In this document: piece after piece, positions 3,136 through 22,857 of the stretch | How the letters are laid out: each line of letters begins with the position of its first letter | Position numbering within the stretch: position 1 is the first letter of the stretch | Source: Zingiber officinale | Lineage: Eukaryota > Streptophyta > Magnoliopsida > Zingiberales > Zingiberaceae | DNA length: 64,000 nt | Reading direction: 5' to 3' | Assembly (NCBI RefSeq): GCF_018446385.1 | Contig: NC_055990.1 | Coordinates: forward strand, 138,954,996-139,018,995 | Position numbers and translations under genes: made by a program | The notes under the pieces: generated by a model | Database searches by the model: none | Seen by the model: the letters and a program-made list of their open reading frames with translations, nothing else | Told to the model about the DNA's origin: nothing

Positions 3136-3477
3136 TATAATATGATAAATTAATTTCTGTATATTATTTTTAAAATAATTTTTTATATAAAAAATTAATT
3201 TTAAAAAAGTATTTAAAAGCTATATCGAATGCACTTTTTTAAAACCAAATAAATTAAACTAGATCATTAATCTTTAGATGGCTTCACATGTAGTCGATAT
3301 GACTTTTTTCTTCTTGATTAGTTCACATGGTTGATTCCTCCTGTCCCTATTTCTATGAAAGAGGTTGTGTATGCATTTGCTCTATTCATTTTAACACTAA
3401 AATTGAATTATTAGAGGGTCTTTTATAATAAAATCTTATGAGGCATTTTGAAAATATTATTAAACCTTACTCCTTGG
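3136..3477. other. AT-rich spacer, no gene seen
   Basis: Poly-A/T rich sequence between the LINE and the next MITE. Neither strand shows an open frame with recognisable protein similarity, an RNA gene or a repeated block. Confidence 0.5.
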
Positions 3478-3486
3478 GGGTATTTG

Positions 3487-3839
3487 AGATCGGATCCTTT
3501 AGTCCATATTTTGTGAATCCGGAGATGATCTATAATGTGATTATGATCGAATCATGACTATGATTCAACCGTAATTAGTCGCTATCCTTCTCTGAGTTCA
3601 TCTTCCCATCCAGATTTTGGATTGGGTTGAGTGGCTGGAGACCGCCCTCACTCGGCACTTGGCCATCCGCCCATCGTCGACTACCTCCGAGCAACCTCCG
3701 ACCTCTCATTCTAATCTAAATTATAACATGGATAAAAAGATTAATCTATGAACAAATCACAATCAATTATGATCAAATTATAATCATAATCCAATCTTAA
3801 TTATATTACGGATCATCCTCACAAAAGAATCCTGGATAA
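3487..3839. mobile_element. MITE with 9-bp target-site duplication
   Basis: A 353-bp non-coding element flanked by the perfect direct repeat GGGTATTTG at 3478-3486 and 3840-3848. The ends are imperfect inverted repeats: the left end has 'GGATCCTTTAGT' and 'TTTTGTGAATCCGGAGATGAT', while the right end read in reverse has 'GGATTCTTTTGTGAGGATGAT'. More inverted AT-rich blocks built on 'ATTATGAT' follow inside. A 9-bp TSD suits Mutator-like MITEs; an hAT MITE would normally give 8 bp. The family name is inferred. Confidence 0.55.
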
Positions 3840-3848
3840 GGGTATTTG

Positions 3849-4288
3849 GATAAATTTCATATTTATTATTATTCTTAATTATTATTTTAATCATTAATGA
3901 GGTAGGCCTAAGGTCGCCGACGTTATCGAGGGAATCACATGGTCTTTGGCCAATCAAGTTGCGCCGAGGGGGGCACCAGTCCCACTCCCACCGCCACGTG
4001 CACCGAGTTACGAGTGTTCAGGAAGTCTTGTGGTGAGTTATGAGCAAGGGTGGTCGTGGTGGCAGCAGCGTAGATCAAAGGTAGCATTAAGAACCTCATG
4101 ATTAATATAATCTATTTGTGATAAATTTAATTAACTTTATTGATTAGTTTTAAAGTGACTTGCGATGGGCGGACAAAAATTTAGTATTTTTTAATTACGC
4201 ATCCTATTTAAAAGAATTATTTTTAAAAATTCTTCATAATTGAAAATTAAATTATGAATATAAATATCCACGGAGACGTATCTTACTC
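3849..4288. other. Spacer, no gene seen
   Basis: Mixed-composition spacer with a GC-richer block at about 3900-4080. I see no convincing open frame, RNA gene or repeat. Confidence 0.4.
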
Positions 4289-4647
4289 TAAGGGTACGTT
4301 TGGTTCAAGTCATTATCTATAACCTTGGTTATGTGATTACCAGGTAATCACATAACAAAGGTTATGAGAAATACAACATAACTTATTAGGTATTTGGTTC
4401 AACTAAGATTACACAATTATTCAATTATTTAATTTTATATTTACTAATTTATCCATTAACTTCTTGAATTAATTTAATTGAATGAAAACCTTCCTCCTCC
4501 TCTCCTCCTCCTCCTATCTGTCTGCTTTTCAAAACGAGAGCGGAAGGAAGGAAAAACAAGAAAGGAAAGCAGTCAAAAAAGAGAGAGAGACTCTCGTTGT
4601 TGTGTTCATCTTCCTCCATCAGCCCATGTTGCTATTCCGTGGCCACA

Positions 4648-5205
4648 ATGCACTTCTTCACGCTTTTGCTACTGTTTCCCTTACTTGTTTCCGCCACCCC
4701 GCCTCCGTCTCTGCCGCCTCTTACGCCGACGGGGCGCAGCCGGGAAACCCAGGGGGAGATCGACGCGCTTACAGCGTTCAGGCTCGCGCTCCGTGACCCT
4801 CTTGGCGCGCTCGACGGCTGGCGTCTCTCTCCGCACCTTGCGACTGGCGCGGCGTCGCGCGAACGCCGTCCGCGTCGTCGAGCTCCGACTCCCTTGCCTT
4901 CGCCTCTCCGGCCTCATCTCTCCTCGGCTTGCTGACCTTCGCCTCTCCGGCCTCATCTCTCCAACCTCTCCTCCCTCCAAGTTCTCAGCTTTGTCGGAAA
5001 CCTCCTCATTGGCTTTGTGCCCGCCGCCTTTCCTCCAGGTATCCGCTACCTGGACCTCTCCTCTAATGCATTCGCCGGCCTTGTCCCGGCCAACCTCTCT
5101 TCCGCTGCCACACAGCTCTAGTTCCTCGACCTCTCCTACAACTGCCTCCACGGCATCATCCCCGGAGACTTCGCGCTTTCTTTCCTCTACCGTGGAAACA
5201 AAGCT
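4648..5205 (+). pseudogene. 5' fragment of an LRR receptor-like kinase gene captured by the transposon
   Basis: Starts with ATG at 4648 and a hydrophobic signal peptide ('MHFFTLLLLFPLLVSA'), then the plant LRR N-terminal domain: 'EIDALTAFRLALRDPLGALDGW' in pieces, a Cys-Asp-Trp-Arg-Gly-Val cap motif in a different frame near 4840, and 'VVELRLPCLRLSGLISP' in a third frame. LRR fragments follow ('RYLDLSSNAFAGLVP', 'FLDLSYNCLHGIIPGD') to about 5205, where similarity stops. The N-terminal phrases resemble the receptor kinase family that includes Arabidopsis At4g36180; this is a family-level recognition from memory. Frame changes, an in-frame TAG and the missing kinase part make it a pseudogene. 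It is far more GC-rich than its surroundings and sits wholly between the Harbinger ends, so it looks transduplicated. Confidence 0.72.
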
Positions 5206-5265
5206 TTCCTTTTTTGGCAATTTTGGGAAAAAATATTGATAATCCCGGAATCGTAGAAAATCTAA

Positions 5266-5482
5266 GGGTGCGTTTGGTTTGCACTGTTTTCATTTTCATT
5301 TTCTAGAAAACGCGCGTTTTCTAGAAAACAGAAAACGACATTTTGTCATTCTCTGTTTTTCTAGAAAACGATAGTCAATTTTTTAGAAAACGCGCGAGAA
5401 AAACGCAAACCAAACACCGTTTTTCAGAAAACGCGCATTTTCCAGAAAATGAAAATGAAAAACGCGCGTACCAAACGCCCCC
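5266..5482. mobile_element. Tourist-like MITE nested in the Harbinger-like element
   Basis: A 217-bp element with inverted ends (GGGTGCGTTTGGTTTGC at left; inverted GGGGGCGTTTGGTACGC at right) and TAA at 5263-5265 and 5483-5485. The interior is rich in 'TTTTCTAGAAAACG' palindromes and can fold into a long hairpin. It inserted after the outer element. Confidence 0.75.
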
Positions 5483-5656
5483 TAAGGTTTTCAAGGTTTT
5501 TTGATTTCTGGTTCTATTCCCTAATTGTTGATGTGGCGGTAATGTTGTATTACCCAGAATCACCAATTACTTAAACCAAATAAGATTATCGTTGATAACC
5601 AACTAAGATTATTAGCGATAACTCTGAACCAAACACACTCTAAGGATAAAGGGTAT

Positions 5657-7431
5657 TGATACGGTTAGTGATGGAGGGGCCCAAGAGGAAATGATTAGAA
5701 AAGTCCAGGCTATGTGGCGGTCAAAAGTCACGAGGAGGTGGCGGTCAATAATCATGGCAACTTGGCGGTCAAAAAGGCAGGCTGACAGGGCAGTCAGGGC
5801 TCAGCATAGGCAGAAGCGGGTTGGGAGCGGCAGAGCTGAGAGGAGTCAGCTCGATCCACAGGCCTGCAGTAGAGGGCCCGGAAACACAGAGTACATAGGT
5901 CGGTCAGGAGCGGCATAGCTGAGAGGAGTCAGCTCGATCCACAGGCCTGCAGTAGAGGGCCCGAAAACACAGAGTACATAGGTCGGTGAGGAGCGGCAGA
6001 GCTGAGAGGAGTCAGCTCGATCCACAGGCCTGCAGTAGAGGGCCCGGAAACACAGAGTACATAGGTCGGTCAGGAGCGGCAGAGCTGAGAGGAGTCAGCT
6101 CGATCCACAGGCCTGCAGTAGAGGGCCCGGAAACACAGAGTACATAGGTCGGTCAGGGTCGGCAGAGCTGAGAGGAGTCAGTTCGATCCACAGGCCTGCA
6201 GTAGAGGGCCCGGAAACACAGAGTACATAGGTCGGTCAGGAGCGGCAGAGCTGAGAGGAGTCAGCTCGATCCACAGGCCTGCAGTAGAGGGCCCGGAAAC
6301 ACAGAGTACATAGGTCGGTCAGGAGCGGCAGAGCTGAGAGGAGTCAGCTCGATCCACAGGCCTGCTGTAGAGGGCCCGGAAACACAGAGTACATAGGTCG
6401 GTCAGGAGCGGCAGAGCTGAGAGGAGTCAGCTCGATCCACAGGCCTGCAGTAGAGGGCCCAGAAACACAGAGTACATAGGTCGGTCAGGGTCGGCAGAGC
6501 TGAGCGGAGTCAGCCCGAGCTACAGACCTGCTGTTGAGGGCCAGGAAGTACAAAGTGTAGGATGCACGTCGGTATTGGCAGAGCTAAGCAGAGGCCAAGA
6601 ACTGGAAGTATAGGCCAATGGGTCGGAGCAGAAGCAGCCCGAGCTACAGACCTGCGGTTGAGGGTCAGGAAGTACAAAGCGCAGGATGCAGGTTAAAGAT
6701 CAGCGTAGCTATGTCTAGACAGTTATGGCTGCAGGTCTGCGAGTGGGAGGCCTGGAAATGAGAACCACAGGTGCAGGCTGGTGCGGGGGCACAATGAATC
6801 GGAGGAGCTAAGTAATACGGGAGCGGAGAATCTCAACGGTCCGTCAGGGGTAATCATTACATACCAACAATGCGAGCGAAGGCGAAGGTTCTTGAAACGA
6901 AAAGATGCTCTTGTAGCCAGTAGTAGCCTGCCAGCTGTCTCTCACTACAGGACAAAACCCAAGTGCAGGACAAAACCCAAGTGCGAAGGCGGAGGTTCCT
7001 AAACAGAAAGATGCTTTCACAACAAATAGAAGCGCGACAGGTGTCCAGGACTAGAGGACAAAGCCGGGCGTCCAACGTTTTTCTGACAGGAGGGCAGGTT
7101 CTAGCAGGAGGACGGATAAAAGGGGAGAAATCCCTCGTACGCAGGTACGCGCACACACTCTCTGGTCACTTCTTTCCACAACTGTTTTTCCTTCTGCTTC
7201 TCTCTGTTCTTTCTGGGGAAAGAGGACCTGACTTGAGCGTCGGAGGGCCTGATCCGGGGACTTTTTCCCTGGGTTTCGGTCCCTAACGTGAGAGGGGAGA
7301 TCGTCTGAGTGTGCGCAGGGTCCTGTAGCGGCGTCAGCCACCCGTTGGGAGCCTGTATCGCCCGCGACTTCCCGTCAACGCCCAGTCCACCGCGACCGGC
7401 CTCTGTCCGACTCAGCCTCCGGACGGGATCA
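5657..7431 (+). repeat. Left LTR of the gypsy element
   Basis: Begins TGATACGG next to the TSD and ends GGGATCA, four bases before the primer-binding site. It contains an 83-bp minisatellite at 5820-6520, then a single-copy part (6530-7345) that is almost identical to the inverted right LTR. A 'GATAAAAG' TATA-like motif at 7115-7122 may mark the promoter. Several open frames here are chance frames in GC-rich repeat DNA. Confidence 0.85.
5820..6520 (+). repeat. 83-bp minisatellite inside the left LTR
   Basis: Eight highly uniform units and one degenerate unit. The landmark 'TCGATCCACAGG' (or a one-base variant) recurs at 5851, 5934, 6017, 6100, 6183, 6266, 6349 and 6432, exactly 83 bp apart each time. 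Each unit also carries 'AACACAGAGTACATAGGTCGG'-like sequence. Confidence 0.92.
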
Positions 7432-7435
7432 AATT

Positions 7436-7453
7436 TGGCGCCGTCTGTGGGAA
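7436..7453 (+). promoter_or_regulatory. Primer-binding site of the gypsy element
   Basis: TGGCGCCGTCTGTGGGAA begins five bases after the LTR's terminal CA. TGG at the first bases and the block TGGCGCCG match the 3' end expected of a tRNA primer (CGGCGCCA, as in plant tRNA-Asp); the rest of the match was not verified. This sequence is common at the same place in plant gypsy elements. Confidence 0.7.
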
Positions 7454-7480
7454 AACAGGAGCCTGTTCCGGAGCGTGAAG

Positions 7481-8760
7481 ATGGAGGACTCCGGTCGAAG
7501 CTCTAGCCGGAGGATCAACGTGACTATGACTGCGGGGGAATACGAGCTTTTCAAGGAGGTTAGGAAGCAAGCCGCCTCCGAAAGACAAGGCACAGTTTCA
7601 CGACCCCGCCTTAGCCCCTGAGGCATCCAAAGAACTAGCTCCTGCTTCCGACAGGAGCTCAAAGAGGAAGCAGCCGGAAGAACTTCCACGTGCTTCATTC
7701 CGAGAGCCCCGTCGCGATTATCATCGGGCTGGACCTCGCGGGCGCAATCCAAAGAAGGAGGAGCCGCCGGCCTCAGTAGCGGAAAGCTCTCTACACCCGC
7801 CCCGGGATTCAGGAAAGGGGAAGACCGTGATCCTGGCTGAAGACCTGCCTGAAGATCCTGACGATAAGGTACCTTTCTCTGACCAGATCTTAAAAGAAAG
7901 CTTGCCGAGGGGTTACCGAGCCCCAAACATTGGAGAATATGATGGGAGCAAGGACCCAGAAGAGCATCTGAGAAAGTTCAAGAACGCGGCTATATTGTAT
8001 CAATATAGTGATGTCGTCAAATGCCGAGTCTTCCTGCACACTCTGTCTGGATCGGCGCAAAAGTGGTTCGATGGATTGCCCCCGAATCCATCGCTGTTTC
8101 ATGGACTTCAAAACGGCCTTCCTACGCCGTTTCGCCAGCAGTCGTAAGTACCAGAAAACCGACCATTGTCTTTTTGCTCTCAAGCAGGAGTCAACTGAGC
8201 CCCTGCGAAGCTACATCAATCGATTCAGTCAGGTAGCCAACGACGTCCCCTCTGCCACCTTTGAGATACTGATGAGCGCCTTCTCCCACGGATTGCGAGA
8301 AGAGGAATTCTTCAGAGATCTCATCAAAAGCCCCGCCCAGAGTTTTGACGACATGGTAGAGAAAGCCTCGTGCTACATCAAAGTGGAGGAAGCGTAGGCC
8401 GCCAGGCGGAAAGCCGAGAAGACGATGGCATCAGGCAACCGAACTGAAAGAAGAGCACCCCAGCCACCCCAGCCCTTCCAACGCATTCAGCCAAGGCCTG
8501 CCCCCCAGCCCGCGCAGGGAGCCAGACCAGCTCCGCGAGTCGCCGCCATACAAGCGCCCAGGCCTGGACCGAGGGGAGCACCATATTGCACATATCATCG
8601 GTCCAGGACGCACGATCTCAGCAACTGCTTCCAATTCGCCCGGGATTCCAGGCGAGCTGCGGAGCAAGGCTTGCCTCCCCCGGCGCTGGCGCCTCAGATA
8701 CAGAGAATGGAGGAAGAACGGGCTGCAGCTGGACGTGCTCGGCAGGCCCGGCCCGACCTA
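7481..8760 (+). pseudogene. gypsy gag (capsid/nucleocapsid), broken
   Basis: ATG at 7481 opens gag (MEDSGRSSSRR...), but the frame ends at a TGA at 7619 and continues in a second frame to about 8100. That frame holds the retrotransposon gag domain ('NIGEYDGSKDPEEHLRKF', 'LSGSAQKWFDGLPP'). A second shift leads to 'DFKTAFLRRFASSRKYQK', 'LRSYINRFSQVANDVP' and 'LIKSPAQSFDDMVEKASCYI'. A TAG at 8395 interrupts it before the proline-rich part with a zinc-knuckle-like 'CTYHRSRTHDLSNC' (near 8590). Gag forms the particle and binds the RNA. The lesions mean it could not be made intact from this copy. Confidence 0.8.
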
Positions 8761-8960
8761 GCTGGCCCATCTAACCAAGCTGGCCCCGGCGAAGACCGAA
8801 GAGAAGCCGGAGAACTTGATAATCGGGGCAACGTGGCTGTGCGAGAGATCGGTATGATCTCAGGAGGGCCCACTGACGGGGACTCAGGCCGGGCTCGTAA
8901 AGCACATAGCCGGCGACTATATGTGGGGGCCGTGGGATGCAGCTACGAGCAGGCATCTGG

Positions 8961-9480
8961 TCCTGTCCTCAGCTTCGGGCCTCAAGACTTGGAGGGTTTA
9001 GAGCTGCCCCATGATGACACCCTCATAATCAGGGCCGTTATTGCTAATAGCCGAGTGGCTCGGATCTTTGTGGATACCGGGAGCTCGGTCAACATTTTAT
9101 TCAGGCTGCATTTGAGGAGATGCAGATCGACGCCGCTGACCTCCAACCTGTAACCACTTCCTTGTACGGGTTCACAGGTAATGAAGTCAAGCACATGGGT
9201 CAGATCAAGCTGGCCATTTCCATGGGCACTGAGTCATTGGTGCGCACGCGGAGGAGCACTTTCATTGTGGTGGATTCGCCTTCCTCCTACAACGTTATCC
9301 TGGGAAGGCCAGCCCTGCATGAGTTCCGGGTTGCCGTTTCCACGTTTCACCAGAAGATCAAGTTCCCGGTCGGCGAGCAGGTCGGGGAGGTCAAGGGGGA
9401 GCAGAAAGCGTCTCGTAGCTGCTACATAGACATGGTCCGAGTAGAGGCGCGCAAAAGCCGGAGGACGCAAGATGGGGGAG
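8961..9480 (+). pseudogene. gypsy aspartic protease, frameshifted
   Basis: The catalytic 'IFVDTGSSVNILF' lies near 9068-9105, with the preceding 'HDDTLIIRAVIANSRVARIF'. The frame then shifts and the second half ('SSYNVILGRPALHEFRVAVST') continues from 9120 in another frame. The enzyme would process gag-pol; the shift directly after the active site separates its two halves. Confidence 0.78.
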
Positions 9481-9599
9481 TACACGCTATCCAAGAGGAA
9501 TCGCTACCTATCGCTGAAGAACCGATTTCTTGGGAGGAGGTTCAGCTACACCCGACAGATCGGAGAGCATCACTCGCATCGCCAGTGACTTACCTCCAG

Positions 9600-10605
9600 A
9601 GCTTAAGGCGGAGCTAATACAGTGTCTGCGTCGCAACCGAGACGTCTTTGCTTGGTCGCCAGAGGAGTTGCCCGGGGTCAGACCAGAAGTAGCCGAGCAC
9701 AAATTGCATATTATGCCCGAGGCTAAGCCAGTCAAGCAGAAGAAGAGAAACTTCCCTGCTGAGCAGAATAAAATTATCCGAGCTGAAGTAGAGCAGCTCC
9801 TGAAGGCGGGGCACGTCCGAGAGGTGCAGTTCCCGTCCTGGCTCTCTAACGTCGTGTTGGTCAAGAAGCCAAACAACAAGTGGAGGGTGTGCATAGACTT
9901 CCGTGACCTCAACAAGGTCACTCCAAAAGACTGTTATCCGCTCCCGCATATCGATCAGGTAGTGGACTCAACAGCTGGTTGTGAAAGGATATGCATGATG
10001 GACGCTTTTCAGGGATATCATCAAATACCCTTAGCCCCGGAAGACCAGGAGAAGGTCAACTTCATAACGGCTGACGGTACTTTCTGCTATACCGTCATGC
10101 CATTCGGACTCCAGAACGCTGGGGCTACCTACCAAAGGATGATGGACAAAGTCTTTCGGGCTCAGATCGGGCGGAATGTAGAGGTTTATGTGGATGACAT
10201 CCTGATCAAGTCCCCTCTGGCGTCTAGTCTGATAACGGATATAGAAGAAACCTGTGGGACTTTGAGGCAATATGGGGTGAAGCTGAATCCCTTGAAATGT
10301 CTGTTCGGGGCCAAAGGAGGGAAGTTCCTGGGTTATCTGGTGACCGAACGAGGGATAGAGGCCAACCCTGAGAAAGTGCAAGCCCTTCGAAACATGCAGG
10401 TCCCTCAAAATCTGAAGGAGACGCAGAAGCTGGTCGGCAGGATAACAGCCCTGTCCCGATTTATCTCCAAATCCACAGATAGAGCGGCGCCCTTTTTCAA
10501 AGTGCTCAGGAAAGCGGCCAAATTTCAGTGGACGGAAGAATGCACACATGCCTTTGAAGAGCTGAAGCAAGACTGGAGTCTTTGCCATCGCTGTTTAAGC
10601 CTATT
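9600..10605 (+). pseudogene. gypsy reverse transcriptase
   Basis: The domain starts with 'DVFAWSPEELPGV', typical of gypsy RT entry, and follows with 'NVVLVKKPNNKWRVCIDFRDLN', 'CYPLPHIDQVVD', 'MDAFQGYHQIPL', 'YTVMPFGLQNAGATYQRMMD' (in pieces), the catalytic YVDD at 10187-10198 and 'KFLGYLVTERGIEANPEK'. Frame loss near 10570-10700 disrupts the link to RNase H; short segments of the missing stretch can be seen in other frames. The RT core itself looks intact. Confidence 0.85.
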
Positions 10606-10799
10606 GTGGGAGAACCTCTTTGGTCTACTTGTCACCACCCCGAGGCCGTAATGTGGTTAAAGAGCAGACAATGTACAACACCAATGTATTTTTTCATCAT
10701 CTATTGAAGGGGTTGAGTCTCGTGATACGGCCCCGGAGAAGCCTGGTCTATGGACTTGTTCTCATGGCTCGGCGCCTCCGACCGTATTTCTTGGCGCAC

Positions 10800-12680
10800 C
10801 CCATTACCGTCTTGACGAACAGTACAATGGGCCGAGCTCTCACCAAGGTAGAAGTGGCGGGCCGGCTTATCAAGTGGGCAACTGAGCTAGGGGAGTATGA
10901 CATACAATATCAGCCTCGAACCGCAATCAAAGCACAGGCTCTGGCGGATTTCCTGACAGAAGTATACCCAGCGGACTCAGAAGAGGTCTGGAAAATCTAC
11001 GTGGACGGGTCGGCTAACCATCGTGGGAGTGGTGTAGGAGCACTGCTCATATCCCCACAGGGAGATATCATGCAGTTGGTCGTGCGGTTAAGTTTCAGAG
11101 CTACCAACAATGAGGCAGAATATGAAGCTCTACTAATAGGCCTGCAAGCAGCTCGGCATGTGGGGGCGAGTCGAGTCATCATACATTCCGATTCCCAGCT
11201 AGTAACTCAGCAGACAACCGGGCAATTTGGGGTGAATAGCGAGAGGATGCAAGTTTATAAGGAGGCTTATGAAAAGATGAAGGGAGAATTCAAGGAGATC
11301 ACAGTCACGAAGATTCTTAGAACTGAAAATGAAAGAGCGGATGAGTTGGCTAAAATGACTAGTTCCCTGAGTACATGGACGATTGACCGATCTATAGCGC
11401 AGACCTTCCTTGTAGCCCAGATAGATTTACAGAATAACGTGGGAGAAGTAATTGATTGGAGAGCGCCCATAATGAGCTTTCTTCAGCAAGGAACCCTACC
11501 CACCAGCCCTGAAGAAGCGCGTATGATCAAGAGGCAAGCCCACTCTTATGCGATGATTGGGGATCAGCTGTACAAAAGGTCTTTCTCCAGGCCTCTACTC
11601 AAGTGCCTGAATATGGAGGAAGCAGACCAGGCCTTGCGAGAGATACATTCGGGGTGCTGTGGTAATCATGCTGGGGGAAGAACGCTGGCTCGGAAGGTAC
11701 TGCTGGCTGGTTATTTCTGGCCTACCTTGCAGAAGGACGCACAGAGGTTGGTGAATACTTGTCTATCATGCCAAAAGTACCAGAACCTGACGCACAGACC
11801 TACAGAGCTGTTGAGAACTTCCACAGTATCCTTGCCTTTCGACCAATGGGGTATGGATATCGTGGGGCCTTTCCCGATGGCTACCGGGCAGAGGCGCTTC
11901 TTGTTGGTAGCAGTAGACTACTTCTCTAAGTGGGTAGAAGCAGAAGCTTTAGCCAGAATCACTGAAGATGCGGTGATCCAGTTCCTATGGAAAAATATCT
12001 TTTGCAGATTTGGCTTACCTCACAAGTTGGTATCGGATAATGGCCGGCAATTCCAGGGACACAGGATACAGAATTGGTGCAAGGGGTTCGGCATAACTCA
12101 GGCCTTCACCTCAGTGGCTCATCCTCAAAGTAATGGTCAGACCGAGGTGGTCAATCGGGAGATAGTGCGCGGGCTTAAAGTCAAGCTGGATCACATGGGA
12201 GGCAGCTGGGTAGATGAGCTCCCAGGCATTTTGTGGGCCTACCGTACGACGCCCCGAGAGAGCACAGGTCTGACCCCCTTCCATCTGGTCTACGGTAATG
12301 AAGCGGTGGTTCCTCTGGAGGTCGGAATACCTTCTGTAAGAAGGATGATGTACGATGGAGAAAACACCGAGCGGCGGCTGGCTCAACTGGATTTCATCAG
12401 CGAAATTTGTGAGCAAGCAGCTGCCAAGTTGGAAGCCTACAGACAGAGGATGGGACAGAACTATAATAGGAAGGTGATCCCTCGATTCTTCGGAGAAGGT
12501 GATCTGGTCTGGAAGCAGATAAAGCCCTTAGGGGAAGTAACGAAGTTGGCTCCTCAATGGGATGGACCATACAAGATTACCAAGAAATTGGCATCAGGAG
12601 CCTATTATTTACAAGATACTCAAGGAAGGAAGTTGGATCGACCTTGGAGTGCTAATTACCTGCGGCCCTATCAAGTTTGA
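10800..12680 (+). pseudogene. gypsy RNase H and integrase
   Basis: RNase H: 'WKIYVDGSANHRGSGVG', 'NNEAEYEALLIGL' and 'IIHSDSQLVTQQ' (about 10990-11210) give its acidic residues. Integrase: an HHCC zinc domain ('IHSGCCGNHAGG', 'CLSCQKYQ', about 11645-11785), then the D,D35E core: 'WGMDIVGPFP', 'LVSDNGRQFQG' (12030) and 'HPQSNGQTEVVNREI' (12120-12165). The C-terminus 'LAPQWDGPYKI...LRPYQV' lacks a chromodomain, as in Tat elements. This stretch has one long open frame from about 10620 to the stop at 12680 and is the best preserved part of the element. Integrase normally joins the two LTR ends to the target with a 5-bp stagger, matching the GGTAT repeat seen here. Confidence 0.87.
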
Positions 12681-12806
12681 AGGGGCTGTCTTTGTGGACG
12701 TAGGCTGGATCAAACGAGGGGCGTAGAAGCAATAAGATAGTCAAGTGAAAACTCGAAAAGACATATGTACATGTAACGAGTTCCCAGTTTAAGTGGCTAG
12801 TACAGA

Positions 12807-15276
12807 TCATTTGAAAAGAGCAAAAATCTCATCTGGAAGGCCTTGAATAATTAGGTTATGATTCAAGAAATCTGCCGCGGGGATGGAGCTCAAGAAGCCC
12901 TGAGCGTTCAGTTGCCTGATAACTCCCGCCGCCGTGTATGGCACGGTCATGGCAAAGCGTGCCCCAGCCTGGGATAGAAATTCGGGGGAAGTCAGATACG
13001 ACGTTCGACTTCGCAGGCAACGAACTTCTTCTCCCTCCTGATAGGTTGACAAAGCGGTAGACACTCCCGCTAGAGTCGCCCGAGACTGGGACAGTTCCTC
13101 CCTTAGGGCCCGCAGCTCTGCTTCCTGGGCTGTCAACTTAGCTGCCTGAGCCTCCAGCTTATTGTCCTTCTCCCGAAGCAGGGTATCTCTGGACTGAATC
13201 TCCCCAACCTGGTGGGCGAGCTGTTGCTGATATCCCGCCTCTTGTGCAGCTTTTTCTTCACATGCAGCTCGGAGTTCAGCTCTGACCTGCATCAGAGAAC
13301 CTTTTTGCCGCTCAGTCTGGTTGGTTAGAGCTCGAATCTCGGCACGTAGGGCGTGGCTGGCTTGATCAGGATCATTCAGTTGTAGCTCTAGTTCAGAGAT
13401 TTTGTCCCGGAGGTCTTTGCTCTCATGATGGAGGGTGTGGAAGGATTGATTCAACACCAGGGACTCTGCGTGAGTCTGGACCACGAATAAGGACCCTCAA
13501 TTAAAACAAACTCGTGTTCAGGAAAAGGAACAAGGTACTTACTTTAGCCCAAGACTTCGAGAACCTATCCATTTGAGCTAAGGGCAACAAACTACCCATT
13601 TGATGCATGCTCTCTGCCCACAATTTGCCAAGGCCGCCTTTCATCGCCAAGTCGCTAGTAGGGACATCATGTCGTCGAGCCTGAGCTGCTTCAGAGGGGA
13701 TAGTGGTCCTATAACAATGGCGGGCAGGTGGAGAAGGGCCGGCGGGTTGAGAAGGGCCTGCGTCCGAGCCGGGAGGAGCAGGAGGCGACTCGGGAGTGGG
13801 CTCGCCTGGTGCCGGGCTACGTCGCTCACCGGCGTTGTCCTCCTCCTGAGGAATGGGGGTGGAACGAGATGCAGAGGGTCTTCCCCTGTAGGGGTTGGGG
13901 GAGGCTGCCACGGAAATAGCGCAGCAATAACAAGAGGAAATGATGTTAGAATCAGCCATGATGACGGCAGGGAACGCCGCAGTGATAAGGGAACAACAGC
14001 GAGTCCGCGAGAAGTCAGACCTGGTCTTCGACGCCGTCTTTGAAGTTGGGGCTGACCATCAGAGCTGGAGTCGTCAGAACGCGGTAAGCCCTGAGGGGAG
14101 GTTGTGGCATTTTCACCCGCAACGCCTCGACCAGACAAGTTTCGACCCGCGCGACGAAGATCTGCGCGACCCCGTCGAGAGGCCCGGGGGGCTCCTCGGA
14201 AGACCCGCCTAGCTCGATGGCTAGTCTGAGCGTGATCCCGATCCCCGCTCGAAGCGACAGGTGGAGGAGGAGTTTCTTGCGCAGTGGGGGCGGAAATGGG
14301 TCGGACTGCTGCCCCGGGAAAAACGGGACCGAGGTAGGGGAGTAGCCTCCTCTCCAAGATTACTCGGCCACGCCGCAGTATCTCCAGATCGTCTAGGGGC
14401 AGGGGCAGAACCTCGGAGGCACGATACAGGGCCTCCGCTGTAGGCGTCGACACGGAAGGTTATCTTTGCAGATAAAACAAGTGTAAACAGGAGAGAAGAG
14501 CCAAGTGCAGATTTACCCAATGAGCGCGGTGCCCCAGAGAAGGAGGGATTCAGACGGAAAAAAGAAAGCATATCTCCAGACAGCAGTCTCGTCAGATCTA
14601 GGCGCCAAAGTTCCATTCTTGTCGCCGCTGCAGCATAGGAAAGGTCCATATGATACTCTTCCAACTCCGGGGGCGGAGGAAGTCCAGGTTGCCAACACAT
14701 AGGCCAGCCTGTCTCTTCAGGAAACCGGAGAAAAAAGTATTTTTTCCTCCAGTTGGCGCGAGGAGGGGGAAGACGGGAGAAAAAGGCAGTTTGACTGCGA
14801 GCTTGAAATTCAAAAAGACCATCGGCGCGCCGAGCGAGGGAGAAGAAGCAGTGAAAGAGGGGAGCAGACCAGGAAACTTCGCAAACCTCACAGAGTATCA
14901 CGAAGCCACATAGAATCTTTATGGAGTCGGGAGCTAACTGACCTAAGGGGATGTGGAAGTAGCGGCACACTCCAGATAGGAAAGGATGTGGAGGTAGACG
15001 AAGGCCAGACACAAATTGCTCAGTGAAGAAAGTACACGAACCCGGCGGAGGATCGAAGTACACATTTGCAACAGTGGGGATGATAGGGAGGAAGCCTACA
15101 GGGATTTCATAAGTGTACCGTAGGTCATCCCAATCTAACTCGGCAAAGTTTGAAACGCCTGGGAAATGCTCAGCCAACAGAGAAGCCCAGGAAGGAGAGG
15201 CCATGGAGGAAGATAACACCTTAGAGGATGGAGAAGCCAATCGCAAAGGAAAGCCAAGGGAGAAGGGACGGATCAC
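12807..15276 (-). CDS. Antisense spliced gene of the gypsy element (Transposase_28-type protein with coiled coil)
   Basis: Runs opposite to gag-pol. Likely start ATG at 15204 ('MASPSWASLLAEHFPG') or 15276. Exon 1 (to about 14520) has the conserved N-terminal domain of 'putative gypsy type transposon' proteins: 'YEIPVGFLPIIP', 'FVSGLRLPPHPFL', 'FHIPLGQLAPDSI', 'GWPMCWQPG'. Exon 2 (about 14465-14020) and exon 3 (about 13915-13543) are Arg/Pro/Ser-rich. Exon 3 ends at a clear donor AAA|GTAAGT (donor at 13542). Exon 4 (about 13490-12807) is a long coiled coil with many Leu/Glu/Gln heptads, ending '...GLPDEIFALFK'. Such antisense ORFs between pol and the 3' LTR are known from Tat elements; their function is unknown. 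The splice sites other than the exon-3 donor are inferred from frame continuity. Confidence 0.65.
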
Positions 15277-16096
15277 AGCAAGGTCTCGGAGGAAATTAGT
15301 CGGCGGCGGCGGCGTTTGAGTGCTCTACTGTGATGGTGAAAGAAAGAGTCAGATGATACTTATAGGTATGGTGGGTGCGGGACATTTTCGTAAGTCCGCA
15401 ACGGACGGTAGATGCAGGGTTTGGAGTAGACAAGGAACGCTCGGCGATGAGCTTCGAGAAGATAGCCAGGGGGCATTAAGGGAAAGGCAAGGGCTCGATA
15501 TACGAAGCGCTTCCCTAGAAAATTGTTTCAAACAGGACAAAAGTGTACAGAAGGGTCCCCAGAAGGCGGATAAGTCAAATCAGCGAATGGCACGGACACG
15601 GGAGGTGGCCTTTAGCCCAGACCGGCACAGTAGAAGGGCAGCGATGGGGGGAGAAGCCACGTAGCGAAGGGAAGTAGACAAGGGAAGTCTGATCAGCGGA
15701 GCACGGTCGAAACCAACAATTAATTGGCCACAGAAAATAAGCTACAAGTACGCGAAGGGGGCGCGGCACAATTGTTGAATTGCAGAGGAAATCGGAGATA
15801 AACAAGCCGAGGTTAGTATGATTACACAAATACCACCAAGGAAGGGCCGGTAGCAACGCATCAAAAAGCAAGCGGCATAACATGGTTCTAGTTACATTAC
15901 ATTCGGAGAAGGAGGAGACAGGTTGTCAGGAACCGACTGAGAAGAAGCCGGGCTGGCTGGTTCATCAGGAGGAGGGGCAAGGGCTTCAGAAGCTTCGGGG
16001 ATGGCGGCAGGAAGATCCTGGGGAGACACCTCTACGGGAATTGGAGCGGCAGCGGGAGGAGGAGCAGCTCGGAAGAAGAGCCCGTCATCCGCCCCC
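15277..16096. other. Internal gypsy region between the antisense gene and the inverted LTR
   Basis: No conserved domain is visible. The minus strand has a Pro/Ala-rich open stretch (16098-15892) that might be an upstream exon or chance. I see no convincing polypurine tract next to the right LTR, where the 3' LTR of a normal element would begin. Confidence 0.45.
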
Positions 16097-17630
16097 ACGG
16101 GTGGCTGACGCCGCTACAGGACCCTGCGCACACTCAGACGATCTCCCCTCTCACGTTAGGGACCGAAACCTAGGGAAAAAGTCCCCGGATCAGGCCCTCC
16201 GACGCTCAAGTCAGGTCCTCTTTCCCCAGAAAGAACAGAGAGAAGCAGAAGGAAAAACAGTTGTGGAAAGAAGTGACCAGAGAGTGTGTGCGCGTACCTG
16301 CGTACGAGGGATTTCTCCCCTTTTATCCGTCCTCCTGCTAGAACATGCCCTCCTGTCAGAAAAACGTTGGACGCCCGGCTTTGTCCTCTAGTCCTGGACA
16401 CCTGTCGCGCTTCTATTTGTTGTGAAAGCATCTTTCTGTTTAGGAACCTCCGCCTTCGCACTTGGGTTTTGTCCTGCACTTGGGTTTTGTCCTGTAGTGA
16501 GAGACAGCTGGCAGGCTACTACTGGCTACAAGGGCATCTTTTCGTTTCAAGAACCTTCGCCTTCGCTCGCATTGTTGGTATGTAATGATTACCCCTGACG
16601 GACCGTTGAGATTCTCCGCTCCCGTATTACTTAGCTCCTCCGATTCATTGTGCCCCCGCACCAGCCTGCACCTGTGGTTCGCATTTCCAGGCCTCCCACT
16701 CGCAGACCTGCAGCCATAACTGTCTAGACATAGCTACGCTGATCTTCAACCTGCATCCTGCGCTTTGTACTTCCTGGCCCTCAACCGCAGGTCTGTAGCT
16801 CGGGCTGCTTCTGAGCAGCTCTGCCGCTTCCGACCCATTGGCCTATACTTCCAGTTCTTGGCCTCTGCTTAGCTCTGTTGATACTGACTTGCATCCCGCA
16901 CTTTGTACTTCCTGGCCCTCAACAGTCTCAGAGCTCGGCCGACTCCGCCTCACCGCCACCGACCGACCTATGTACTGTGTTTCGGCCCCATCGCAGTTCG
17001 TGGATCGAGCCGACTCTCAGCCGCCTCCCGACCGACCTATGTACTGTGGTTTCCGAGCCCCATCGCAGGCTCGTGGATCGAGCCGACTCCTCTCAGCCTG
17101 CCCCGACCGACCTATGTACTGTGGTTTCCGGCCCCATCGCAGCTCGTGGATCGAGCCGACCTCCTCAGCCTCCGCCGCCCGACCGACCTATGTACTGTGT
17201 TTCCCCTCACCGCAGCTGTGGATCGAACTGACCTCCTCACCGCCGACCGACCGACCTATGTACTGTGTTTCCGGCCCCATCGCAGCTCGTGGATCGAGCC
17301 GACTCCTCACTCGCCGCCTCGACCGACCTATGTACTCTGGTTTCCTGCCTCTCGCAGTGGATCGAGCCGACTCTCTCAGCCGCCTCCGACCGACCTATGT
17401 ACTGTGGTTTCCGCCTCTCCGCAGCCCGTGGATCGAGCTGACTCCTCTCAGCTCTGCCGCTCCCAACCCGCTTCTGCCTATGCTGAGCCCTGACTGCCCT
17501 GTCAGCCTGTCTTTTTGACCACCAAGTCGCCATGACTATTGACCGCCATCTCCTCGTGACTTTTGACCGCCACATAGTCTGGACTTTTCTAATCCTTTTC
17601 TCTTGGGCCCCTCCATCACTAATCGTATCA
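16097..17630 (-). repeat. Right LTR of the gypsy element, inverted and truncated
   Basis: The reverse complement matches the left LTR from its first base (17630 = 5657) to 16097 (= 7345). The last 86 bp of the LTR (7346-7431) are absent, as is a primer-binding site beyond it. The 500-700 bp nearest 16.1-16.9 kb are nearly identical to the left copy, and the first 170 bp differ by roughly nine changes, mostly transitions. The minisatellite block is different in the two copies. Confidence 0.85.
16960..17460 (-). repeat. About 70-bp minisatellite inside the right LTR
   Basis: Seven or so units, recognised by 'CCTATGTACTGTG' and 'TGGATCGAGC', spaced roughly 67-76 bp apart and variable in length. 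They are relatives of the 83-bp units of the left LTR but clearly shorter and more varied. Confidence 0.85.
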
Positions 17631-17635
17631 GGTAT

Positions 17636-18295
17636 AAACTGAGTTCATTGGTATTTTATAGATTCTTAAAAATGTAGAAAATTTGGGATAGTGCGTGAAA
17701 AACGCCGAAAAGTCGAGGAGGTTGACTCCAAGAGACGACTTCAGGGTCAACAGTCAAATAAAAAAGTATTTATTGTGGAATCTTCTGGTCCATCCAGACG
17801 AACTAGCACATCTGAGATGACATCCCACTGACCCTTTATGATCCCAAAGTTGAATTTGTTTACTTTTTCACTATCTTCCGCAGCCCTTTCTGACTTTCTT
17901 GTACAAATATAATATTTTATGTGAAACCTTAAGTCAGAACAAATTGGCTAGCCAAATGTACTCCACCGCTCTTTGCCATATTCCCACTCTAATCGGGTCG
18001 GTTCAACAATAGTTCGATACGCTGAAGTCCGACAGGATTCAATCCTTCCACAACTTTAGCTCGACGTTCTTGCTTCGCTTTGTTAGCTAGTGACACTAAG
18101 TATTAGAATTTGACCTTCAGTACTCTATTTCCAATCTGAAGTAATAAGGGCAGAGTCGTTGAAGGAGTACATCTAGGGGTGCACTTAGGCTGCTTTGGAG
18201 GTATCTCTGCCTCGCGCGCGAGGTGCTTACTAGTGCTTTCTAGTTTCTCCTAAGCCTTATGAGAGGGAGACGTCTTCCAATCCCTCCTAAAACGG
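17636..18295. other. Spacer, no gene seen
   Basis: Mixed sequence right of the gypsy element. I see no clear repeat or long frame. Short coding-like pieces may be old retrotransposon debris. Confidence 0.35.
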
Positions 18296-18515
18296 CTCCC
18301 AATTACGTATGATGATCTATTGGAATGGATTGAAAAGTACATTAAAACAGAGCAATCTCAACTATTTAAGAAGGACGATAAGACAATCACTCGACTCATG
18401 TAGAAAGTAGAATGCAGAGCCCAATATGAGTCCCCTAGCGCGCTTCATCCTCCTGCACACGTCCCTTGAGGCCGTGATCACGGAGAAGGTATTGCAACTC
18501 TAGCTATAATTAAGG
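18296..18515 (+). pseudogene. Degenerate gypsy gag fragment
   Basis: One frame reads 'YDDLLEWIEKYIKTEQSQ' and, after a stop and a shift, 'RFILLHTSLEAVITEKV'. These resemble the 'ELL..A.KYI..E' and 'PL.....EIL..I' stretches at the C-terminal end of plant gypsy gag. No LTR or pol was seen next to it. Weak similarity; treat as a relic. Confidence 0.35.
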
Positions 18516-18589
18516 AAAATTGAGTGGGAAGGGGGCCTGGAAGTCTCAATCATATCACTTAATTGACTCCTTCCATAACCACTTGGCAT

Positions 18590-18925
18590 TGTTAGAAGTT
18601 GGACTAGAAAATTAAGTGTCATTAATCACCTCAAGTAGTTTAAATGTTGTAATTAACTTGCCCACTAAAATCTTGTATATACTGGCTGCACAAATATATT
18701 AGTAGATATAGAAGCAATTAACAATATTTATTTTAAAAATAATTCAAAATTAATTAATGACAAAGTAGCAGAACTTGAGAAAGAGCAGCGGGCTGGGCCG
18801 AACCGAGCAATGTTATAAATTAGATAGATTAAATGTTGTCACTTAGACCATGCACTAAAATCTTTTAGTTATTGGTTTCACAAATATATTAGGAGATATG
18901 GAGGCAAGTAAGGGAAAATGTATCA
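18590..18925. repeat. Diverged tandem duplication
   Basis: Two related blocks, about 18610-18730 and 18825-18910, share 'TTAAATGTTGT', 'CACTAAAATCTT' and 'CACAAATATATTAG.AGATAT'. The stretch between and after them (to 19418) is AT-rich with a (TA)n run near 19170 and no gene. Confidence 0.5.
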
Positions 18926-19418
18926 AATTGATAAAATTGTCCCCCACACTACTCTATTTTCTTAACACTTTGCCAAAACTTTACTTAATTCATTTTAAGG
19001 TGATGCTAATCAAATCGCTAATTAGATTTTGTGATTTGTAGAATTGGTGCAAACGTCAAGTATATAACACGTACAAAGACGGCTAACAATATGATAAAAT
19101 AGAATAGATAACAGAAGAATAAGAACATGTAAAAAAGATCAACAATCTTATGGAAATAATAGCTTCTGACAATATATATATATATATATGAATTTTATAT
19201 ATCTGTTAATAATTAGACATATACCAATACCTTTAATATTATTTATTAATAATATTTTTCAAAAAAATCATATTCGTTAACATTGTTGGTGCAATTGTTC
19301 TCGAATCAAAGTTGACTAATTTAACTAAATTCAAATTAGCTTATATAAGAGAGAAGTTAAGTAGGTCAAGAAAGAACCAGATACTTGACTGGAAAAGTGT
19401 TAGACACAAACAATCTAA

Positions 19419-20710
19419 TGTCGGAGATTTATGGGTACTTAATTGAATTTAAAACTTACACAGAATTTAAATTCAACTTACAGTCGAAATGACCTTAGCA
19501 GATAATCTCAGGCTGCCAGCAGGGGTTGGTTTCCGTAACGCAGCAGAGCTGAGCGACAGGGCAGGTCTGCAGAGCGATAGATCAGGTCTACAAAGCGGCA
19601 GACCAGAGCGGAAGACTAAGTCTGCAGAGCGGAAGAGCAAGTCTGCAGAGCGGCAGACCAGAGCGGAAGACCAAGACAGATCTACAGAGCAGCAGACCAG
19701 AGCAACAAGGCAATTCTGCAGAGCGGTAGGGCATAGCAGAGCAGTAGACCAGCGCTGCAGTGCGGAAGACCAGAGTGGCAGAGTAGGTCTGCAGAGCAGC
19801 AGACCAACGTTGTAGTGCGGAAGACCAGAGTGGCAGAGCAGGTCTGCAGAGCGGCAGGGCAGAGCAGCAGACCAGCGTTGCAGTGTGGAAGACCAGAGTG
19901 GCAGAGCAGGTCTGCAGAGCGGCAGACCAGAGCAACAGAACAGATATGCAGAGCGGCAGACCAGAGCAGCAAACAGATCTGCAGAGCGGCAGACCAGAGC
20001 AGCAGGTCTGCATAAAGGAAGGTCAGGTCTACAGAGCAGAATGACCAGGTATGTTTGAACAGGTTTGCAGAAAGGAAGACCAGGTCTGCAGAGTAGAATG
20101 ACCAGGTCTATTTGAGCAGATGTGCAGAATGGAAGACCAGGTCTGTAGAGCAGAATGACCAGGTCTGTTTGAGCAGATCTGCAGAATGGAAGACAGAGAG
20201 GTAGAGCAGACCAGACAGTAAGGTCGGGCGAAAATTCTGACGGGGCAATCTGACCGAGGTCTACGAGTAGCAGTTTCCTTGAAACAGATTCGCCCACCTC
20301 CGGCTGTGCTTCGAGGTTTACTCGGGTCGTCTGTTTCCCAGGATACAACGATCGACCGTGAACTCCATCAAGCACTGGTGGTCACGGCGAACTGAGTGGC
20401 ACCCGAATGCTATCACGGGCACTCCGGTGAGCAGGAATTGCGCGACAGAGGGGGGGGGGAATAAGGCGGAGAGCCTCTGCTTGCTTCACTGTGTTCTCTT
20501 CGTAACCTTTTGTCTGTGGTCGCAACCTCCTTATATAGGAGCTCAAGACCAAAGGACAACATTAATGATCAACTAATGATCATTACTCAATGCTAGCGTT
20601 TCACTTGGCCGTTTTGATTCTGCATTAATCTTTCTTTAATGCATCCGTTACACAAGCAGCAAAAAGCTTTATGTGGCAAAATGTTGGTTGTTCCGCTTGG
20701 GCAAATTTAG
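19419..20710 (-). repeat. LTR (probably solo) with minisatellite core, copy 1
   Basis: Recognised by comparison with the split copy at 54832-59890. Shared blocks: TGTCGGAGATTTA at the left edge, 'GATAATCTCAGG.TGCCA', 'CTGTTTCC.AGGATACAAC', 'ACTGAGTGGCACCCGA', 'CCTCCTTATATAGGAGCTCA' and 'AAATGTTGGTTGTTCC' at the right. A TATA motif read on the minus strand (TATATAAG, about 20530-20537) implies minus-strand orientation. No primer-binding site follows the LTR end, so it may be a solo LTR. No TSD could be assigned. The family is not named. Confidence 0.6.
19545..20215. repeat. GC-rich minisatellite in the LTR
   Basis: Irregular tandem units built from 'CAGAGCGGCAGACCAGAGC' and 'CAGGTCTGCAGAG'. 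They produce long Leu/Cys/Ser-rich chance frames on the minus strand; these are not genes. Confidence 0.8.
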
Positions 20711-22160
20711 CCCCGACCGATCCGGCATTCGTGTGCAGTCGTGCTCGAGTCAACTTGATTCAGTGCAATCCGGGCCCTGGATTTGGACCCCTTACGCACC
20801 CACTCATGAGAGAGAGTCTCTCCCCATGCATTTGTTCACATTCTCAATGTATGTGAATCAATATAAACCAACAAACTTACCTTGAAACTTCCAATGTAGG
20901 ACTAAAGTCTCATTCACAATGGAGTTTCTTCTCTTCCACCTCTTCTCCATTCACACTTATTCAACAGAAAGTTCTACCTAAAAGCTAGATAATGAGAAGT
21001 CTTAACTAAATGTTAAACAACATGAAGTCATAATTGGAAATTAGGCAACAAAAAGTCCTAACAAAGGGTTAGACAATAAAAAAAAAACTAATGAGTGAAT
21101 TTAGAAAGTAGAAGTCCTAACGGGAGTAAGTAGTGAAAACCTAGTTGGGAACTCGACAATGGAAGTCTTAGCTAAGTTAGGCAAGAAAAAAGTCTAAGTT
21201 GATTAAAAGTTGATCGGACACTTAGTGATCAGAAGTCTAACAGGAGTTGGCATATGATGGAAAGTCTAAGTAGGTCAAGTGTTTACCAGACACTTGGTGA
21301 ACAAACCTTAGCAGACACTATGTAAAAATCAACAATAAACTTCGGATATTATCTGAAGTAATAGGTAGATAATTATTAAAGCAGACGTACAAGGGTCAAT
21401 TTAGGTTGTGTTTTTCTCATGAACAAAAGACCTTAAATTGATTGGGACAATTAATTAAGGCACATGCCAATCGATTAGGGCAATCGATTAGACAGTATTT
21501 TCGTAATAATATATAGAAGAAAGTTTCTGAATTGATTGGAGTAATCGATTAGAAGCTACCGCATCGATTGATATGACTCACCAATTGATTAGATGGAAAA
21601 AGAATAATTCTGTAGGTTTTTGAATGGTCGTTTTACATGACAATCGATTAGGGATAAACCTAATCGATTAAGAGTTGTCAAAATAATCGATTCAGATTTC
21701 AAAGGCGTCAAAGTAATCCTAAAAAAGGGATTTTATGATGATTTGAAGATAGACTTGGTTACGCCAATTTTTAAGGATTCTGAAGCGAAGTGTTATATTT
21801 TTGAGTCAAGAAAAGGTATTTTCATATTGTAAGATATCAAGTAAATAAGGTTTTCATTATATTGTATGTTTACTTTCTTATTTTTGTTGTATTTTTATTT
21901 TTGAATTTATTTGAGGTTTCTCCATCCTGAAAAAGGTGTCAAGAAAAAAAGATTTTATAATGGATGAAATCATAAAAGTTGGATCCTTAAATTAGCTAAG
22001 GTGGGGACTAACTAAAAATAACATGGCTTTAAATTTTGTGTCATAAATCAACTAAAAAAATTTTAAAAATAAAAAGTAATTGAAGTTATTCACCGCTCGA
22101 CTCTCTGCTTCCATACAAACATTAGACTAGTGAACTGTGTCCACGTAGTGATAAATTTGG
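20711..22160. other. Intergenic region with repeated short motifs
   Basis: At 20960-21310 a loose repeat around 'AGAAGTCTAA' and 'GTTAGGCAA' recurs. At 21420-21700 'AATCGATTA' and near variants occur about ten times. No open frame is convincing. The last 200 bases are the distal PR-1 promoter. Confidence 0.45.
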
Positions 22161-22297: not shown

Positions 22298-22362
22298 CCA
22301 ACCCTGGCTATCTTGAATCGATCACCAGTGAATTATCGATAACCAATTAATTGGAATTAATT

Positions 22363-22857
22363 ATGAGGTCATCGTTGATGCTGGCGTTGCTCTGCGCCGC
22401 CGCCTTGGCTCTGGCTACGGCGCCGACGACGACGGTGGCGCAGAACTCGCCGCAGGACTTCGTGGACGCCCACAACTCGGCGCGCTCTGCGGTGGGGGTG
22501 GGGCCGGTGTCGTGGGACGACACGGTGGCGGCGTACGCGCAGAGCTACGCGGAGCAGCGGATCGGCGACTGCCAACTGGTGCACTCCGGCGGGCCCTACG
22601 GCGAGAACCTCTTCGGGGGGTCGGGCGCCGACTGGACGGCGGCGGATGCTGTGGGCTTGTGGGTGGGCGAGCAGCAGTACTACGACTACGACAGCAACAG
22701 CTGCGCCGCCGGGCAGGTGTGCGGGCACTACACTCAGGTGGTGTGGCGGTCGTCGACGGCGATCGGGTGCGCGCGCGTGACGTGCAACAACGGAGCCATC
22801 TTCATCATCTGCAACTACAATCCCCCAGGCAACATCGTCGGCGAAAGACCCTATTAA
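22363..22857 (+). CDS. PR1: Pathogenesis-related protein 1 (PR-1), secreted CAP-domain protein
   Basis: Single exon, 164 residues. ATG at 22363 fits the TATA box and gives a signal peptide (residues 1-26, cleavage likely before QNSPQDF). The CAP domain follows: '[19 protein letters not shown]', 'PYGENLF', '[11 protein letters not shown]', 'CNYNPPGN', with the six conserved cysteines and the His/Glu cavity residues. The C-terminus [11 protein letters not shown] fits the CAPE1 consensus PxGNxxxxxPY, preceded by CNYN, so it could release an 11-residue CAPE1-type peptide as in tomato PR-1b. There is no lysine and many Asp/Glu, so this is an acidic PR-1. PR-1 proteins bind sterols and accumulate in the apoplast during defence. 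Length and motifs are normal, so it looks functional. A broken paralogue lies at 41066-48360. Confidence 0.95.

What the first reader, a model, noticed from the sequence alone, without database searches (positions are those of the whole stretch)
5652..17635. A 12-kb Ty3/gypsy element integrated with its LTRs inverted, flanked by a perfect 5-bp TSD
Seen: the left LTR (from 5657) is plus, the right LTR (to 17630) is its reverse complement, outer ends are TGATACG/CGTATCA, and GGTAT lies directly outside both ends. Known: integrase of Ty3/gypsy elements joins two LTR ends with a 5-bp stagger, and normally one end is U3 and the other U5. Here both outer ends are U3. Inference: two U3 ends were integrated together, either from two cDNA molecules whose other ends were later joined by repair, or from an aberrant cDNA with inverted LTRs. 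A later inversion would have had to break exactly at the LTR edge to keep the TSD. By chance alone a 5-bp match occurs about once in a thousand.
Basis: partly seen in the sequence, partly recalled or inferred. Interest (0 to 1): 0.87.

Follow-up and report, generated by a model that had tools for sequence, protein, structure and literature searches.

The report
Ginger retrotransposon inserted by two U3-ends
In a ginger genome assembly a jumping gene of the Ty3/gypsy kind sits with the same (U3) end on both sides instead of one of each, and the unoccupied site on the homologous chromosome points to one genuine insertion; it looks like the trace of a copying accident rather than a new kind of element.

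Summary
Window 5657-17630 is a Retand/Tat-like Ty3/gypsy element of cultivated ginger with a complete left LTR (5657-7431) and an inverted, U5-truncated right LTR (17630 back to 16093). Both outer ends are U3 and GGTAT flanks both. The homologous haplotype (C6) has an empty site, and a nearby paralogous copy holds the same 19 bases across the site with one GGTAT, so the 5-bp duplication is real. Bases 5657-16093 are colinear with ordinary direct-LTR copies; at 16093 the last 5.7 kb and the direct 3' LTR are replaced by the inverted LTR through a join with 1 base of homology, spanned by no other match among 40 scored candidates. Best reading: a linear cDNA with two U3 ends was integrated in a concerted way, most simply because plus-strand strong-stop DNA (U3-R-U5) switched template onto a co-packaged RNA. 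Two cDNAs, joined later by repair, are the main rival and are not excluded; the two U3s differ more than R-U5 does, which does not favour a single RNA source. The ragged repeats of the right LTR are probably nanopore consensus error. No reads could be checked.

The parts
5652..5656 (.). left copy of the 5-bp target-site duplication GGTAT
   Evidence: single copy in paralogous site L057 and as GGTGT in the allelic empty site L058
5657..7431 (+). left LTR, complete (TGATACG...GGGATCA), with eight repeat motifs spaced 83 bp in U3
   Evidence: end set by comparison with the C5 and C2 copies whose TSDs abut GGGATCA
7434..7454 (+). primer-binding-site-like stretch TTTGGCGCCGTCTGTGGGAAA
   Evidence: read from sequence; PBS label recalled, not tested
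7432..16093 (+). internal region, colinear with ordinary direct-LTR copies up to 16093
   Evidence: 5990-13639 at 96.2% to L009 and 13640-16093 at 97.9% to L010 (C5 copy); 90.6% (6160-13887) and 88.0% (13888-16093) to the C2 copy
9530..12680 (+). pol: reverse transcriptase, RNase H, integrase, in two open frames (9530-10651 and 10620-12680)
   Evidence: Pfam RVT_1 9.2e-30; RVT_3 1.1e-19, RNase_H 1.9e-9, Integrase_H2C2 2.7e-8, rve 2e-17
14221..15276 (-). antisense ORF with Transposase_28 (TRP28) domain, in the same sense as the inverted right LTR and downstream of it
   Evidence: PF04195 1.1e-11
16093..16093 (.). internal junction: LTR CCCGTGGGG joined to internal GGCGGATG (minus strand), 1-base (G) homology, 82 bp short of the U5 end
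   Evidence: of 40 scored candidates (2670 found) only this locus spans it; two others run 2 and 5 bases past it
16093..17630 (-). right LTR, inverted, U3 outermost, U5 truncated; its repeat array (about 16.99-17.44 kb) is ragged, probably nanopore consensus error
17631..17635 (.). right copy of the target-site duplication GGTAT
   Evidence: see empty site

Best explanation
Best supported by the sequence: a single integration placed DNA whose two termini are both U3 ends into GGTAT on one haplotype of ginger, with a 5-bp duplication. Inferred: that DNA was one aberrant reverse transcript. Plus-strand strong-stop DNA, whose 5' end is the exact U3 terminus, stopped about 82 nt before the end of U5 and its 3' end switched, with 1 base of homology, onto the second packaged genomic RNA about 5.7 kb upstream of the 3' LTR. 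There it primed minus-strand synthesis back to the primer-binding site. Normal plus-strand transfer then gave the left U3-R-U5 end, and second-strand synthesis made a blunt cDNA with U3 at both ends, which the integrase used like any pair of ends.
For: Target present once in the paralogous copy (AAGGGTATAAACTGAGTTC) and, with one change, at the allelic empty site. Flanks in the same order on C6 (window 3160-4285 at 87%, 17631-21210 at 91%), a further anchor at 94% and one more paired by position. U3 terminus at both ends. The second arm ends inside the LTR, as strong-stop DNA would; a random break along a roughly 17.5-kb cDNA would fall there about 1 time in 10 (my estimate). R-U5 of the two arms differs by 6 of 717 bases with no indel; each is 7 substitutions and 1 gap from the nearest other copy. 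The variant repeat unit (CAGTT) is followed by four units in both arms. So the arms look to be of the same sub-lineage. The internal join is 82 bp short of the LTR's CA end, so integrase did not make it.
Against: One case only. One base of homology at the join fits end joining equally well. The left-right pairing in the R-U5 tree has support 0.305. In the first 207 bases of U3 the arms differ at 10 sites, whereas the left arm differs from seven other gap-free family copies at only 3 to 8 (right arm: 7 to 10); this is against a single source RNA unless the right arm is error-laden. No reads were checked.
Confidence: 0.45

Rival explanations
1. Two separate cDNAs each gave one U3 end to the integrase, which joined both to the target; their other, broken ends (one at 16093, one inside U5) were then joined by host end joining.
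For: Same anatomy and TSD; 1-base homology at the join; the two U3s differ at 10 of 207 bases, more than the left one differs from seven other copies.
Against: Needs two cDNAs, two breaks and a repair; the break in the second arm falls in the LTR by luck; R-U5 of the arms is nearly identical.
Confidence: 0.33
2. The element went in normally and was altered later: the 3' part and direct 3' LTR were replaced by an inverted LTR whose edge landed exactly on the TSD.
For: LTR-mediated rearrangements are common in plants (PMC1950507); both LTR termini end in ATCA, which could guide a join.
Against: Needs a break at the exact base of the U3 end beside an intact TSD, plus a second break; no partner LTR near it appears in the listed hits (capped lists); flanks keep their order on C6.
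Confidence: 0.1
3. Two independent insertions at the same GGTAT in opposite orientation, followed by deletion of everything between.
For: Would give the same product; no tool result speaks for it.
Against: Needs the same 5-bp site twice; the two other TSDs read here (AGTTA, GTTAA) show no fixed target, though two are few.
Confidence: 0.03
4. Assembly artefact inside a repeat-rich region.
For: The right LTR repeat array looks like uncorrected error, of a kind seen in three other arrays; the assembly is ONT-based, polished with short reads.
Against: The ends fit to the base an empty site on other sequence; a misjoin would not create a matching TSD.
Confidence: 0.07

Closest known systems
Retand lineage (Tat clade) of plant Ty3/gypsy retrotransposons (PMC11963269; passages seen)
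   Same: Sense gag-pol, long pol-3'LTR region in ordinary copies, antisense ORF with TRP28 (PF04195), 5-bp TSD.
   Different: LTRs here are about 1.8 kb (315-1194 bp in the paper's clusters); this copy lost 5.7 kb and its direct 3' LTR and ends in an inverted LTR. No RT tree was made.
Template-switch complex LTR insertions of Triticeae, rice and maize (Sabot and Schulman 2007, PMC1950507; whole text read, figures not held)
   Same: Abnormal reverse transcript inferred from matching outer LTRs and intact 5-bp TSD.
   Different: Their complexes have a third, internal LTR and a model that gives LTRs in one orientation; here there are two LTRs in opposite orientation, hence two U3 ends.
Autointegration products of retroviruses and retrotransposons (mechanism recalled; PMC2644782 seen as abstract start in a listing)
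   Same: Can yield changed LTR orientation (recalled).
   Different: Autointegration joins a processed LTR end to an internal site; the internal join here is 82 bp short of the LTR end, and both outer ends are joined to host DNA with a TSD.
DIRS-like elements with inverted LTRs (recalled; PMC5633606 seen in listings only)
   Same: Inverted terminal repeats.
   Different: DIRS elements use a tyrosine recombinase and make no TSD (recalled); this one has an rve integrase and a 5-bp TSD, and the ordinary copies examined have direct LTRs.

Membership tests
Ty3/gypsy, Retand/Tat lineage | pol order RT, RNase H, integrase with rve domain | tested here: met
   RVT_1, then RVT_3/RNase_H, then H2C2 and rve
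Ty3/gypsy, Retand/Tat lineage | antisense ORF with PF04195 between pol and 3' LTR | tested here: met
   paper passages
Ty3/gypsy, Retand/Tat lineage | RT phylogeny places it in Retand | not tested
   no tree of RT was built
LTR retrotransposon insertion | 5-bp TSD of a site present once in an unoccupied relative | tested here: met
   (paralogous copy exact; allele with one change in the 5 bases)
LTR retrotransposon insertion | direct LTRs, one U3 and one U5 outer end | tested here: not met
   both outer ends are U3
Template-switch complex (Sabot and Schulman) | third LTR between two cores | tested here: not met
   no third LTR-length repeat reported between 7432 and 16093
Autointegration product | internal join at the processed end of an LTR | tested here: not met
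   join is 82 bp inside U5; feature recalled
DIRS | tyrosine recombinase, no TSD | tested here: not met
   rve integrase and TSD; defining feature recalled

The most novel reading that the evidence does not exclude
Plus-strand strong-stop DNA can leave its template and prime minus-strand synthesis on the second packaged RNA, giving an integration-competent cDNA with two U3 ends. Such insertions carry two inward-firing LTR promoters, so that sense gag-pol and antisense transcripts overlap, and may act as natural double-stranded-RNA loci that silence their own family.
Probability: 0.3. Interest if true: 0.72.

Novelty: new variant of a known kind. Interest (0 to 1): 0.55.

Why it matters
If reads uphold it, this is a natural record, with empty site and TSD, of a plant Ty3 integrase using two U3 ends in vivo. 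If the strong-stop route is right, it gives a simple diagnostic (second arm never longer than LTR plus primer-binding site) to look for in any long-read genome; tools that look only for direct repeats would miss such copies. A locus with two inward-facing LTR promoters is also a candidate source of siRNAs against its family (not tested).

Tried and rejected
Chance TSD: rejected by the uninterrupted paralogous target and the allelic empty site. A mobile sub-family with inverted LTRs: not supported, since only this locus spans the junction among 40 scored of 2670 candidates (a partial look), and of 38 pairs of neighbouring listed LTR starts within 40 kb 36 were direct, 1 inward, 1 outward. Those pairs come from 109 positions (100 listed of 690, 5 of 5, 4 of 4). 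The outward pair is this element itself, and its right start entered only because the pattern was taken from it, so this is no unbiased rate. The inward pair C2:26080668/26088920 was checked for a U5-U5 insertion: the 401 bases at 26078850-26079250 and at 26090400-26090800 gave no match to the window's LTR; by eye the left one looks like gag, so I read two separate elements; not resolved. Hypermutated or old right LTR: the ragged repeat array was first taken as biology, but similar change is present in three other arrays (L068, L069, L070), which I fetched because they were among the better outside hits; the assembly is ONT-based. Methylation-linked base-calling error is my inference. Papers: in searches (20 of 336 listed; 20 of 618; 12 of 51; 7 of 7; 2 of 2; 13 of 13; 6 of 6) I saw titles and starts of abstracts and noticed no two-U3 insertion; subscription journals are mostly not held, so this is no proof of absence.

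Full report
What is there. The window lies at C5:138954996-139018995 of a 3.09-Gb genome of 211 contigs. The lengths of C2 (194,392,478) and C15 (141,269,392) equal the longest scaffold (194.39 Mb) and the scaffold N50 (141.27 Mb) of the haplotype-resolved ginger assembly of 2021, which has 11 homologous chromosome pairs and was built from Oxford Nanopore reads polished with Illumina reads (PMC8342452, passages seen). The paper's table gives 219 scaffolds against 211 contigs here. I take the genome to be cultivated ginger; this is inference.

The element. The left LTR runs 5657-7431. Ordinary copies on C5 and C2 begin TGATACG, end GGGATCA, have direct LTRs about 16 kb apart and TSDs AGTTA and GTTAA. 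The window copy follows the C5 copy up to 16093 (96.2% over 5990-13639, 97.9% over 13640-16093). There the ordinary copy goes on for about 5.7 kb to its direct 3' LTR, whereas the window copy joins an inverted LTR that runs outward to its U3 end at 17630. The inverted LTR lacks the last 82 bases of U5. At that place 9 of the 10 other LTRs caught by my motif read GTGGGGAG, one reads GTGGGAG, and the window's left LTR has GTTGGGAG. The internal sequence of the C5 copy reads CGAGGCGG on that strand. The window reads CCCGTGGGGGCGG, so the two sides share one G. Pol encodes RT, RNase H and an rve integrase, and an antisense ORF carries PF04195, the TRP28 domain found in antisense ORFs of 97% of Retand clusters (PMC11963269, passages seen). 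The RT was not put on a tree.

The target. The right flank (300 bases) has three matches in the genome: itself, C6:113156168 at 93% and C6:113148658 at 83% over 172 bases. C6 is the homologous chromosome here: window 3160-4285 (87%) and 17631-21210 (91%) match C6 in order; C5:138977295 matches C6:113170248 at 94% over 1001 bases, and relatives of the same gene lie further on at C5:139019060 and C6:113216693 (this last pairing is by position). At the C6 allele there is no element...ACCAAGGGTGTAAACTGAGTTC. The second C6 copy reads ...GATGAAGGGTATAAACTGAGTTC. The window reads ...ATAAAGGGTAT, element, GGTATAAACTGAGTTC. So GGTAT was present once and was duplicated. A caution: another insertion (4292-5640, absent from both C6 sites) ends about 13 bases left of the element's TSD region, so the left side of the comparison is short, and the allele differs by two bases in length there.

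How it arose. Two U3 ends joined to the two strands of one site, 5 bases apart, means concerted integration. That integrases accept two like ends in vitro is recalled; my search for it showed only two titles. Three routes to such a DNA were weighed. (a) Template switching by plus-strand strong-stop DNA: its 5' end is the exact U3 terminus, its length cannot exceed LTR plus primer-binding site, and a switch onto the second packaged RNA gives exactly this product. The observed second arm, an LTR cut 82 bases short, fits. (b) Two cDNAs, each giving its U3 end, then joined by repair. This fits too, but the break in the LTR is then luck (about 1 in 10 by length, my estimate). (c) Later rearrangement, which must hit the LTR edge to the base. 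The steps of reverse transcription used in (a) are established knowledge, recalled.

Kinship of the arms. R-U5: 6 substitutions in 717 bases, no gap; each arm is 7 substitutions and 1 gap from the next nearest copy, on C3 (21 distinct sequences; 10 duplicate rows, the window's own re-fetched loci and incomplete matches were dropped). Tree support for pairing the arms is 0.305. The first 207 bases of U3 tell otherwise: 10 differences between the arms, while seven other gap-free copies differ from the left arm at 3 to 8 sites and from the right arm at 7 to 10 (three further rows were shifted by gaps and are not used). So the U3s may come from two RNAs, or the right arm carries error. Both (a), with two different packaged RNAs, and (b) allow this.

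Quality warning. The right arm's repeat array has units of 67-76 bases instead of 83, with CAG turned to CGG or CG and small losses. Its best-scoring match outside the element is 79% over about 250 bases; shorter ones reach 89% over 72 bases. Similar decay is present in three other LTR arrays on C2, C12 and C15, which I chose from those hits. I read this as uncorrected nanopore error; the stretch 16.99-17.44 kb should not be used for dating.

Consequences, inferred. The TATA-like stretch GGATAAAAGGGG is present in both arms, so the two LTRs would fire towards each other, the right one reading towards the antisense TRP28 ORF. Overlapping transcripts might feed RNA silencing. Nothing here tests that. 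The lack of a direct 3' LTR makes ordinary onward transposition of this copy unlikely.

How rare. The LTR-start pattern has 690 matches with up to 3 mismatches (330 forward, 360 reverse), of which 100 were listed; with 9 more there are 109 positions and 38 neighbour pairs under 40 kb: 36 direct, 1 inward, 1 outward, the last being this element. Its right start was listed only through a pattern taken from it. So no other outward pair was seen in about one sixth of the family's starts; the rest was not seen.

Verdict. In the listings (titles and starts of abstracts) I saw nothing that describes a two-U3 insertion; the nearest is the template-switch complexes of Sabot and Schulman (whole text).

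Noticed in passing
4292-5640: A separate insertion of about 1.35 kb with inverted ends (GGGTACGTTTGGTTCAAG / CTGAACCAAACACACTC) and TAA at both sides, PIF/Harbinger-like by recall, absent from both C6 sites; it holds a GC-rich coding-looking stretch (no Pfam match for 4478-5236) and a nested inverted repeat at 5249-5499.
   Followed up: partly
22354-22857; C6:113148145; C6:113170248: CAP-domain (PF00188) gene, PR-1-like by recall, with relatives on C5, C6, C17 and C18; the paralogous copy of the target site on C6 lies just upstream of one of them.
   Followed up: partly
L068, L069, L070 and window 16990-17440: LTR repeat arrays with CAG-to-CGG/CG changes and ragged unit lengths in four places of the assembly, probably unpolished nanopore error.
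   Followed up: partly
C2:26080668(-) and C2:26088920(+): Two LTR starts of the family facing each other 8.2 kb apart; they look like two separate elements pointing away from each other.
   Followed up: partly
29850-32850 (-): Transposase_21 (tnp2) remains with DUF4218 at 31246-32850 and DUF4216 at 29850-30470; CACTA/En-Spm label recalled.
   Followed up: no
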